Translations under genes and position numbers: made by a program
Shown here: piece after piece, positions 4,414 to 16,094 of the stretch
Layout of the letters: every line of letters begins with the position of its first letter
Position numbering within the stretch: position 1 is the first letter of the stretch
The notes under the pieces: model-generated
The model's database searches: none
The model's input: the letters and a program-made list of their open reading frames with translations, nothing else
What the model was told of the DNA's origin: nothing
Assembly (NCBI GenBank): GCA_030157685.1
Contig: JAOAUI010000441.1
Coordinates: 1-36,131, forward strand
Source of the DNA: Ferruginibacter sp.
GTDB taxonomy: Bacteria; Bacteroidota; Bacteroidia; Chitinophagales; Chitinophagaceae
DNA length: 36,131 nucleotides
Reading direction: 5' to 3'

Positions 4414-4827
4414 ATGAGTAAAAAAGTAGCCGTTTACCGTAAAGAACATTTTAATGCAGCACACCGTTTAAATAATCCGTTGTGGGATGAAGCTACCAAC
4501 CAGCAGGTTTTTGGTAAATGCAATAACCCGCATTTTCACGGCCATAATTATGAACTGGTGATTAAAGTAACAGGTGAGCCCGATCCTGTAACCGGTTACG
4601 TAATGGATATGAAACTGCTGAGCGATATTGCACAGGAAAATGTGCTTGAAAGGTTCGATCATAAAAATCTGAATGAAGATACAGCGGAGTTTAAAAATCT
4701 GAATCCTACGGCAGAAAATATTGCCATAGTGATCTATAATATTTTAAGAGAAAAAATTGATATGGAATTTGATCTGCAAATCCGACTGTATGAAACAGAA
4801 AGAAATTTTGTGGATTATCCGGCATAA
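4414..4827 (+). CDS. 6-pyruvoyltetrahydropterin synthase / QueD-family protein, copy 2
   Basis: A 137-residue paralogue of the preceding gene with the same layout: [37 protein letters not shown] and [11 protein letters not shown]. All zinc ligands, the catalytic Cys, the Asp-His pair and the substrate Glu are present, so both copies should be active. Again the spacing between Cys and HGH is five residues, and CNNPxxHGHNY is very like eukaryotic PTPS. The two copies are clearly diverged in the second half, so this is not a recent duplication. Its stop codon lies in a 7-bp phased repeat running to the folE start, 35 bp away. Likely co-transcribed with folE. Which copy is the queuosine enzyme is not clear. 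Confidence 0.9.
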
Positions 4828-4866
4828 ATCTAAAGTCTAAAATCGTAAATCTAAAATCAGAAATGG
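4825..4866. repeat. Heptad-phased repeat at the PTPS-folE junction
   Basis: Six consecutive 7-mers in exact phase: TAAATCT, AAAGTCT, AAAATCG, TAAATCT, AAAATCA, GAAATGG. The first contains the TAA stop of the upstream gene and the last contains the ATG of folE, so the whole junction is built of the repeat. Confidence 0.85.
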
Positions 4867-6942: not shown

Positions 6943-7045
6943 GTTAATCCATATATCCGTTAATCCGTAGGTGCGTTAATTTGTAAAAGGGTTTAAAATA
7001 TTGAAATCCCTATGGATTAACCAATTAACTAATTAACGGATTAAC
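6943..7045. repeat. Inverted arms of 8-bp phased repeats between convergent genes
   Basis: The left arm has five 8-mers in phase beginning GTTAATCC, ATATATCC, GTTAATCC (6943-6982). The right arm has four in phase, GGATTAAC, CAATTAAC, TAATTAAC, GGATTAAC (7014-7045). The right units are reverse complements of the left ones, so the region can fold into a long imperfect hairpin. It fills the gap between the fabD stop and the stop of the convergent secreted-protein gene and may serve as a two-way terminator. Confidence 0.8.
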
Positions 7046-7050
7046 AGAGT

Positions 7051-13207: not shown

Positions 13208-13687
13208 ATGGACATCAAGCAAATTCAGGAGCTGGTAAAGCTCATTAACAAGACCAATATAGGAGAAATCACCATTGAAGAAGAAGGCGTAAAAATTACA
13301 GTTAAACAGAAAAAGGATCCCGTACAGCATATTATAGCTGGCGGTGGAACTCCGTCATTTACATCGGCGCCTGCTGCAGGTACTGCACCTGCTCCGGCAG
13401 CAGCGGCCCCGGTTGCGGCTAAACCAGCAGAGCCCAAAGCAGATAACCTGGTAACCATTAAAAGCCCGATGATTGGTACTTTTTACCGCCAGGCTGGCCC
13501 GGGAAAACCCATTTTTGCCAGCGTAGGCGAAGAAGTTACACCCGGTAAAGTGGTTTGTATTATTGAAGCCATGAAACTTTTTAATGAAATTGAAAGTGAA
13601 GTGAAAGGCAAAATTGTAAAGGTTTTGGTAGAAGATGCCAGCCCTGTGGAGTATGACCAGCCTTTGTTTTTAGTAGATCCAAGTTGA
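13208..13687 (+). CDS. accB: Biotin carboxyl carrier protein of acetyl-CoA carboxylase
   Basis: Carries biotin between the biotin carboxylase (AccC) and the carboxyltransferase in the first committed step of fatty-acid synthesis. 159 residues: the N-terminal MDIKQIQELVKLINKTNIGEI helix is typical of AccB. A flexible Ala/Pro linker (about residues 50-78) follows, then the biotinyl domain with the biotinylation motif IIEAMKLFNEIE, Lys123 being the attachment site. IKSPMIGTFYR is the domain entry and VEYDQPLFLVDP its end. accC follows after a 134-bp repeat-rich gap, so they are probably one transcript. The stop codon is part of the repeat. A possible -7 box, TATCTTAG, with one mismatch lies about 45 bases upstream. 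Confidence 0.96.
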   Translation: MDIKQIQELVKLINKTNIGEITIEEEGVKITVKQKKDPVQHIIAGGGTPSFTSAPAAGTAPAPAAAAPVAAKPAEPKADNLVTIKSPMIGTFYRQAGPGKPIFASVGEEVTPGKVVCIIEAMKLFNEIESEVKGKIVKVLVEDASPVEYDQPLFLVDPS

Positions 13688-13821
13688 TTTGATGATGTGC
13701 TGATTTGATGATTTGAAGATGAAGTGATCAAAAGTGTTTATCGCTTTTCAATCAAAAGTCCAGGATTATCAAATTGCTGAATCATCAAATTTTCAAATCA
13801 TCAAATTTCCAAATTAAAGCA
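13685..13821. repeat. Inverted arms of octamer-phased repeats between accB and accC
   Basis: The left arm starts at the accB stop: TGATTTGA, TGATGTGC, TGATTTGA, TGATTTGA and two weaker units in exact 8-bp phase (13685-13732). The right arm runs TTATCAAA, TTGCTGAA, TCATCAAA, TTTTCAAA, TCATCAAA, TTTCCAAA, TTAAAGCA in phase from 13766 to 13821 and ends exactly at the base before the accC ATG. The two arms are reverse complements of each other in their core units, giving a possible long hairpin. Confidence 0.88.
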
Positions 13822-15159
13822 ATGTTTAAAAAGATATTGATAGCTAACCGCGGTGAGATTGCTCTCAGAGTAATAAGAACCTGCCGTGAGATGGGCATTA
13901 AAACAGTTGCAGTTTATTCTACTGCCGATAAAGATAGTTTACACGTAAAATTTGCCGATGAAGCCGTTTGTATTGGCAAACCCGTCAGTATGGATAGTTA
14001 CCTGAACATGGCGCATATTATGGCGGCTGCCGAAATTACCAATGCAGATGCCATTCACCCCGGATATGGATTTTTGGCAGAGAACGCAAAGTTTGCGAAG
14101 ATCTGTGCCGATCATGGCATTAAGTTCATCGGCCCTACGCCCGAGATGATCAATGCCATGGGTGATAAGATCACTGCAAAAAATACCATGATTGCAGCCG
14201 GTGTGCCTGTGGTGCCTGGTGTTGATGGTTTGCTGGAAAGTGTTGACCATGCAAAAAAATCGGCCAAAGAAGTTGGATACCCGGTTATTTTAAAAGCAAC
14301 TGCCGGTGGTGGTGGTAAAGGAATGCGTGTGGTTTGGGAAGAAGCCGAAATAGAAAAAGCATTTGAAAATGCCAAGACAGAAGCCGCTGCTTCTTTTAAG
14401 AACGACGGCATTTACATGGAAAAATTTGTGGAAGAACCACGCCATATTGAAATACAGATTGCAGGAGATCAATACGGTAATGTTTGCCATTTAAGCGAAA
14501 GGGATTGCTCTATACAACGCCGCCATCAAAAACTGGTGGAGGAAACACCATCGCCATTTATGACCGATGAACTCAGGCAACGCATGGGTGATGCAGCCAT
14601 AAAAGCAGCACAGGCTATTAATTACGAAAGCGTAGGAACCGTTGAGTTTTTGGTTGATAAGCACCGCAACTTTTATTTTATGGAGATGAACACCCGTATA
14701 CAGGTGGAGCATTGCGTAACAGAAGAAGTGATCAACTTTGATTTAATTAAGGAACAGATAAAAATTGCCTGCGGCGAAAAGATTGTGGGTAAGGCTTACT
14801 TCCCGCAAATGCACGCCATTGAGTGCCGTATTAATGCCGAAGATCCTTATAATGATTTTCGCCCCTCACCAGGAAAGATAACTGTGTTGCACCAGCCCGG
14901 CGGGCATGGTGTACGGGTAGATAGCCATGTGTATGCAGGTTATATTATTCCTCCTTATTACGATAGCATGATCGGTAAACTGATTGCCATTGCACAAACC
15001 CGTGAGGAAGCCATCAATACCATGAGCCGTGCTTTAAGCGAATATGTAATTGAAGGCATTAAAACCACCATACCTTTTCACCAGCAACTGATGCAGGATG
15101 AAAATTTCAGGAAAGGGAATTTTACGACCAAGTTTATGGATACGTTTCAGTTGAAATAA
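13822..15159 (+). CDS. accC: Acetyl-CoA carboxylase, biotin carboxylase subunit
   Basis: ATP-dependent carboxylation of the biotin on AccB. The true start is [17 protein letters not shown] at 13822. The ORF-track start 16 codons earlier would translate the junction repeat into a non-conserved tail. ATP-grasp features are visible: [14 protein letters not shown] (glycine-rich loop), [27 protein letters not shown], and [16 protein letters not shown] with the metal and catalytic residues. ECRINAED and FRPSPGKI are in the C-terminal lobe. The 445-residue length is normal. A strong terminator follows, so accBC ends here. Confidence 0.97.
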
Positions 15160-15857: not shown

Positions 15858-16094
15858 GTTTTAGATATTTGATAAATTAAATTAGATATTTAATCAAATA
15901 AATTAGAATTTTGATAGTATAAATTGTAATTTCAATAATATAAATTATAATTTTGACTATATAAATTAAGATTTCGATTGTATAAATTAGAACTTTAACT
16001 GTATAAATTAAAACTTAGACCACATAAATTAGATATTTGATCCGCTAAATTGAATATTCACCAGTTTTTCTATAAATTAGGTAATATTTTAACC
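15858..16094. repeat. Array of ten AT-rich units with exact 21-bp spacing, upstream of an XRE regulator
   Basis: AAATT begins at 15879, 15900, 15921, 15942, 15963, 15984, 16005, 16026 and 16047, always 21 bp apart. A degenerate unit fits at 15858 and one more unit, offset by six bases, is at 16074. Inside several units the pattern is a dyad AAATT-nn-AATTT. The 3' part is variable, with a frequent TAT end. Units differ from each other at many positions, so this is not a recent expansion. The 21-bp period is two helical turns, putting every unit on the same face of the DNA. The array ends 16 bases before the XRE start. Confidence 0.92.

What the first reader, a model, noticed from the sequence alone, without database searches (positions are those of the whole stretch)
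13685..13821. Octamer-phased inverted repeat spanning the accB stop to the base before the accC start
The left arm starts in the accB TGA and runs in 8-bp steps (TGATTTGA type). The right arm runs in 8-bp steps (TCATCAAA type) and ends at the base immediately before the accC ATG. The arms are complementary. The repeat thus sets the whole intercistronic space between two subunits that need a fixed ratio, and it sits on the translation signals of both. It may be an RNA hairpin controlling translation or stability, or a self-propagating short repeat that tolerates gene junctions.
Basis: partly seen in the sequence, partly recalled or inferred. Interest (0 to 1): 0.66.

Follow-up and report, generated by a model that had tools for sequence, protein, structure and literature searches.

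The report
Gene-less shell of mobile element
The mirrored 8-letter repeats between two fatty-acid-synthesis genes look like the empty shell of a small, poorly known genetic element that usually carries one gene between its repeat ends, and each version of that gene comes with its own repeat word, as if its protein reads the word.

Summary
The repeat is real: 8-bp-phased inverted arms (core 13687-13713 / 13780-13806) fill most of the accB-accC spacer; 0 of 2000 shuffles match it. It is better explained as the gene-less version of an element built round a 23S_rRNA_IVP four-helix-bundle gene (PF05635, "IVP") than as an accB/accC ratio switch. In Chitinophagaceae, 60 of 73 IVP genes sit inside 7-8-bp-phased inverted repeats, and the word differs by locus. 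Related IVP proteins share words. The IVP subfamily found inside accB-accC in 20 relatives was predicted to carry window-type octamers, and mostly does. Sister species with 95-99% identical AccC can hold different IVP lineages with different arms at this site, so protein and arms appear to change as a cassette. Phased repeats are common in IVP+ genomes (24 in 600 kb) and nearly absent from IVP- genomes (1 in 520 kb). Arm mismatches show no G-U bias (88 vs 100; tRNA control 18 vs 0), arguing against selection on an RNA hairpin and for recognition as DNA. The window holds a second, GTTAATCC-type copy whose likely IVP partner is elsewhere in the genome. Transposition was not observed; the mobilising mechanism is inferred.

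The parts
13208..13687 (+). accB (biotin carboxyl carrier protein); its TGA is the first 3 nt of the left arm
   Evidence: TIGR00531 E 1.2e-44; translation
13685..13728 (+). left arm: octamer-phased [AG]ATKTGNN units (TGATTTGA TGATGTGC TGATTTGA TGATTTGA AGATGAAG TGAT)
   Evidence: lag-8 identity 0.72, 0 of 2000 shuffles; direct-repeat family spaced 8,8,8
13729..13764 (.). loop/interior without an IVP gene; unrelated to the loops of other copies in the genome
13765..13817 (-). right arm: the same octamer word in inverted orientation (core 13780-13806 pairs with 13687-13713)
   Evidence: lag-8 identity 0.60, 2 of 2000 shuffles; inverted-repeat score 34, 0 of 2000 shuffles
13822..15159 (+). accC (biotin carboxylase); ATG follows the right arm after a few nt
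   Evidence: TIGR00514 E 1.1e-218
6943..7048 (.). second gene-less phased inverted repeat, word GTTAATCC; the same word flanks an IVP gene elsewhere in this genome (L113 = C64:2068-2385)
   Evidence: inverted repeat 6956-6987/7017-7048, lag-8 0.56; word search 71 vs 1 control hits genome-wide; L113 arms

Best explanation
The repeat is a gene-less (non-autonomous) copy of a small element whose full form is: left arm of 3-6 phased 7-8-bp words, one IVP four-helix-bundle gene (PF05635/TIGR02436), right arm of the same word inverted. Each IVP subfamily has its own word. The window carries the [AG]ATKTGNN octamer of the subfamily that occupies accB-accC in many related genera. SHOWN: arms and phase; IVP inside such arms in most cases; word/protein co-variation; occupied, gene-less and element-free states at the same accB-accC site; different IVP+arm cassettes at that site in sister species; conservation of the arms in the close pairs tested; near-absence of the repeats from IVP-free genomes. 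INFERRED: the IVP protein (solved relatives are homopentamers) recognises its word as duplex DNA, pairs the two inverted arms and promotes their copying or insertion into short intergenic spacers; gene-less shells remain or are mobilised in trans. The arms abut both genes because the original spacer was only about 20-30 bp.
For: 60 of 73 IVP loci have flank inverted repeats above the 99% sham level, and the true partner flank beats 19 random flanks in 54 of 73. IVP pairs at least 50% identical share words in 49.5% of cases vs 3-4% below that; Mantel 9 of 2000. Prediction test: 30 loci of the accB-accC IVP subfamily mostly carry AATKTGNN-type octamers; window arms match this subfamily (median 20.5) and not other IVPs (9), p=8e-12; members outside accB-accC alone p=9e-6. 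20 of 120 distinct accB-accC junctions hold an IVP gene, dN/dS 0.04-0.15 where measurable. Sister species: AccC 99% but IVP 58%, 97% but 59%, 95% but 61%, with different arms. Arms near-identical in L276/L277 at dS about 3.4 while spacers are unalignable. IVP+ vs IVP- density 24/600 kb vs 1/520 kb. No G-U bias. Phylum-wide IVP, 19 of 30 flank repeats.
Against: No insertion event, target duplication or excision was seen. Loops of gene-less copies in the own genome are unrelated, so they are not obvious internal-deletion copies. Gene-less words match IVP words of the same genome only weakly (150 of 2000 permutations; incomplete IVP sampling). No IVP of the matching subfamily was found in this MAG, which is 77% complete. 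IVP distances at accB-accC do not track AccC (r 0.12, n.s.), so loss of an ancestral gene at this very site is not shown. A few other genes also lie between same-word arms.
Confidence: 0.62

Rival explanations
1. RNA-level IVS-type element: the arms form an intercistronic RNA hairpin cut by RNase III (as in 23S rRNA IVS), so the element is tolerated or used as an mRNA processing site.
For: Protein family and overall anatomy (ORF in the loop of an inverted repeat) match rRNA IVS (PMC4990558); the window RNA folds better than shuffles (z -2.7).
Against: Sense-strand mismatches show no G-U excess (88 vs 100 AC; tRNA control 18 vs 0). Arms are also found at convergent junctions. The fold is only modestly special (z -2.7 as RNA, -1.9 as DNA).
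Confidence: 0.2
2. Passive DNA process: slippage plus quasipalindrome template switching makes and homogenises phased inverted repeats in AT-rich spacers; IVP genes merely tolerate such places.
For: Arms within an element resemble each other more than orthologous arms do (0.65 vs 0.29); loops are unrelated.
Against: Does not explain word/IVP-clade coupling across genera, near-absence from IVP-free genomes, or arm conservation at saturated dS.
Confidence: 0.1
3. RNA hairpin that sets the accB:accC expression ratio.
For: The repeat sits next to both translation signals; predicted hairpin.
Against: Same-genus relatives lack it; words differ between species; the same type of repeat sits at unrelated junctions; no G-U bias.
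Confidence: 0.06
4. Ordinary intrinsic terminator or REP-like bidirectional terminator.
For: Inverted repeat in an intergenic region.
Against: AT-rich, loop of tens of nt, 7-8-bp phase, inside an operon; the terminator-like repeats in the window look different (13-nt arms, 2-nt loops).
Confidence: 0.02

Closest known systems
23S rRNA intervening sequences (IVS) with S23p/IVP ORF (Coxiella, Leptospira and others; PMC4990558)
   Same: Same protein family (PF05635), ORF inside the loop of a terminal inverted repeat, selfish-looking, function unknown.
   Different: Here located between protein genes, not in 23S rRNA helices; arms are arrays of a 7-8-bp word specific to the IVP subfamily; gene-less copies abound; no sign of RNA-pairing selection.
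REPIN / REP-RAYT systems
   Same: Dispersed short intergenic inverted repeats depending on one resident protein gene, with protein-repeat co-specificity and near repeat-free genomes when the gene is absent (REPIN features from general knowledge and PMC3116915).
   Different: The associated protein is a four-helix bundle, not a Y1 (HUH) transposase; arms are phased tandem words, not a fixed palindrome.
Intergenic heptamer arrays (TAACTGA repeats in Beggiatoaceae, Cyanobacteria, Bacteroidetes, PMC4679880; STRRs)
   Same: Phased 7-mers near stop and start codons in Bacteroidetes and others.
   Different: Described as direct repeats of one word; no IVP link or inverted architecture reported in the parts read.
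Avd accessory protein of diversity-generating retroelements
   Same: Proposed homologue of PF05635 by sequence and structure alignment (PMC10053308).
   Different: Reverse transcriptase and template/variable repeats were not searched for here; none was noticed in the loci inspected.

Membership tests
IVP phased-repeat element (family defined here) | 7-9-bp phased arms in inverted orientation | tested here: met
IVP phased-repeat element (family defined here) | IVP gene between the arms | tested here: not met
   The window copy is gene-less; the gene is present at the same site in 20 other junctions
IVP phased-repeat element (family defined here) | arm word matches a particular IVP subfamily | tested here: met
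23S rRNA IVS | lies inside a 23S rRNA gene | tested here: not met
   between accB and accC
23S rRNA IVS | RNase III excision from RNA | not testable with these tools
   needs RNA work
23S rRNA IVS | arms maintained as RNA helix | tested here: not met
   GU 88 vs AC 100; tRNA control 18 vs 0
REPIN/RAYT | cognate Y1 transposase (TnpA_REP) | not tested
   no Y1/RAYT search was run; the gene found between arms is an IVP
Curated RNA families (Rfam 15) | match at or above gathering score | tested here: not met
   no match over the repeat; two sub-threshold hits elsewhere

The most novel reading that the evidence does not exclude
A new kind of bacterial mobile element, spread through Bacteroidota: a single four-helix-bundle protein (IVP, relative of DGR Avd) reads and propagates its own 7-8-bp word, written as phased inverted arrays at gene junctions, with no conventional transposase; rRNA IVS would then be the special case that landed in rRNA, and dispersed heptamer/octamer repeats its gene-less offspring.
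Probability: 0.45. Interest if true: 0.9.

Novelty: new variant of a known kind. Interest (0 to 1): 0.76.

Why it matters
The function and mobility of IVS and of the S23/IVP family have been open for decades (PMC4990558), and phased heptamer/octamer intergenic repeats have lacked a maker. A protein family whose members each come with their own repeat word gives a directly testable protein-DNA code, a possible transposase-free mobility system, and an explanation for many Bacteroidota intergenic repeats.

Tried and rejected
RNA-hairpin selection: rejected by the G-U/A-C test with tRNA control. Simple internal-deletion MITE copies: loops share no homology, so not supported as recent copies. Purely vertical inheritance of accB-accC IVPs: IVP and AccC distances uncorrelated, and sister species hold different IVP lineages. 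Same-genome word sharing between gene-less repeats and IVPs: only a trend (150 of 2000). Exclusive IVP cargo: not exact; three other genes lie between same-word arms. Literature: 8 searches of the open-access library found IVS, Avd and TAACTGA papers but no description linking IVP genes to phased repeats; most subscription journals are not covered.

Full report
WHAT IS THERE. Between accB (13208-13687, TIGR00531) and accC (13822-15159, TIGR00514) lie 134 nt. The accB TGA opens an octamer-phased arm (TGATTTGA TGATGTGC TGATTTGA TGATTTGA ...; lag-8 identity 0.72, 0 of 2000 shuffles). After about 36 nt of loop the same word returns inverted (lag-8 0.60, 2 of 2000). The best ungapped inverted repeat, 13687-13713 / 13780-13806, scores 34 against a shuffle mean of 17.6 and maximum of 30. 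Rfam has nothing over the repeat.

NOT UNIQUE IN THE GENOME. The word TGATTTGATGATTTGA (up to 3 mismatches) has 174 places in the 3.18-Mb draft genome against 58 for the reversed control, many in plus/minus pairs tens of bases apart. Of the copies looked at, most lie within about 20 bp of both neighbouring genes, usually codirectional, some convergent; their loops are unrelated. A second word, GTTAATCCGTTAATCC, has 71 places against 1 control and forms about a dozen paired sites. One of these is in this window (6943-7048), and one encloses a gene of the PF05635 family (L113).

THE GENE. The own genome has five PF05635 (23S_rRNA_IVP, four helix bundle) genes. Three of the four with both flanks readable lie clearly inside a phased inverted repeat with its own word (AGTCGGG, GTTAATCC, TGGATAC); the fourth (L115) has weaker arms just under the threshold used below. 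Over 73 IVP loci from a 61-genome sample of the family plus L034, the flank-to-flank complementarity exceeds the 99% sham level in 60, and the true partner flank beats 19 random partner flanks in 54 (expected 3.7). The preferred lag is 7 (or 14), then 8. Across Bacteroidota 90 of 118 genomes carry IVP genes, and 19 of 30 sampled loci pass the same threshold. In 20-kb samples, six IVP-bearing genomes gave 24 phased inverted repeats in 600 kb (all six positive); nine genomes without PF05635 gave 1 in 520 kb (one of nine positive; genome-level Fisher p=0.0014); shuffles of the window and of two of these genomes gave none.

PROTEIN AND WORD GO TOGETHER. IVP pairs at least 50% identical share arm words in 49.5% of cases, against 3-4% for more distant pairs (none below 20% identity); the Mantel statistic is reached by 9 of 2000 permutations. 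TAAGTNN recurs in several genera, as do AGGCANN and GTTGATNN. This gave a prediction: the IVP subfamily seen inside accB-accC in two same-genus species (L252, L266/L034) should carry window-like octamers wherever it occurs. Relatives of it at E<=1e-20 are found in 90 of 249 family genomes, and most of its 30 best loci have AAT[TG]NGNN octamers, including loci outside accB-accC. The window arms match this subfamily (median score 20.5; 19 for the 8 loci elsewhere) and not other IVPs (9), p=8e-12 and 9e-6.

THE accB-accC SITE. Among 120 distinct accB-accC junctions from relatives, 20 hold an IVP gene, 48 of 96 long enough show significant arm complementarity, and 24 are shorter than 60 nt; same-genus relatives with 28-30 nt spacers have no element. 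IVP genes at this site are under purifying selection (dN/dS 0.04-0.15 where measurable). Sister species can hold different cassettes: AccC 99% vs IVP 58% (L289/L294), 97% vs 59% (L280/L290), 95% vs 61% (L273/L285), with different arm words; accordingly IVP distances do not follow AccC distances. Where the same cassette is shared, the arms are near-identical (L276/L277: 33 of 37 and 38 of 39) although synonymous sites are saturated and the inner spacers cannot be aligned. The arms are therefore constrained and appear to travel with the gene.

DNA OR RNA. If the arms were kept as an RNA helix in the transcript, sense-strand G-U mismatches should exceed A-C. They do not: 88 vs 100 over 113 elements, while tRNA stems from the same sequences give 18 vs 0 (only 11 tRNAs). 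With the same word in inverted orientation at both ends, recognition as duplex or cruciform DNA is the simplest reading.

MECHANISM (INFERRED). The IVP protein, whose solved relative 2rld has five chains in the entry and whose Xanthomonas homologue is a pentameric ring (PMC4990558), would bind its word arrays, bring the inverted arms together and promote their copying or insertion into short intergenic spacers. Shells without the gene, like the one in this window, would be left behind or mobilised in trans. What is missing is an observed insertion, a target-site signature and a biochemical test. Weak points: unrelated loops of gene-less copies, only a trend for word sharing within genomes, no matching-subfamily IVP in this 77%-complete MAG, three other genes found between same-word arms, and the fact that arms were picked for best complementarity, so the within-element similarity figure (0.65 vs 0.29) is biased upward.

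RELATION TO KNOWN THINGS. It resembles, and shares its gene family with, rRNA IVS, but fails that family's defining location and shows no RNA-helix constraint. It behaves like a REPIN/RAYT pair, but the protein associated with it is a four-helix bundle. Heptamer arrays (PMC4679880) may be relatives. The open-access literature searched has no description of this link; that library is incomplete.

Noticed in passing
window 15861-16041: 21/42/63-bp tandem array with heptamer sub-phase and an internal inverted repeat (15907-15932/15942-15967) in the spacer downstream of accC; may be another decayed phased element.
   Followed up: no
window 4825-4864: Heptamer-phased run (AAATCTA type) just upstream of the ATG at 4863; only one arm visible.
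   Followed up: no
L227, L038, L049: Same-word phased arms enclosing genes other than IVP (transporter-like ORF, others): composite elements or adjacent copies.
   Followed up: partly
G062, G087, G287, G302 (same genus): Window-type word strongly amplified in some species (61-115 places) but rare in others, so expansion is lineage-specific.
   Followed up: partly
IVP arm mismatches in the first 73 loci: Purine-purine mismatches on the sense strand outnumber pyrimidine-pyrimidine about 2:1 (98 vs 47): an unexplained strand bias.
   Followed up: no
L268, L254 and other accB-accC junctions: Long spacers with only faint or one-armed words, possibly decaying shells.
   Followed up: no
L028: Another octamer word in the own genome (GTTTAGNN, GTTTAGTGGTTTAGAAG...) forming a phased inverted repeat; its IVP partner was not sought.
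   Followed up: no
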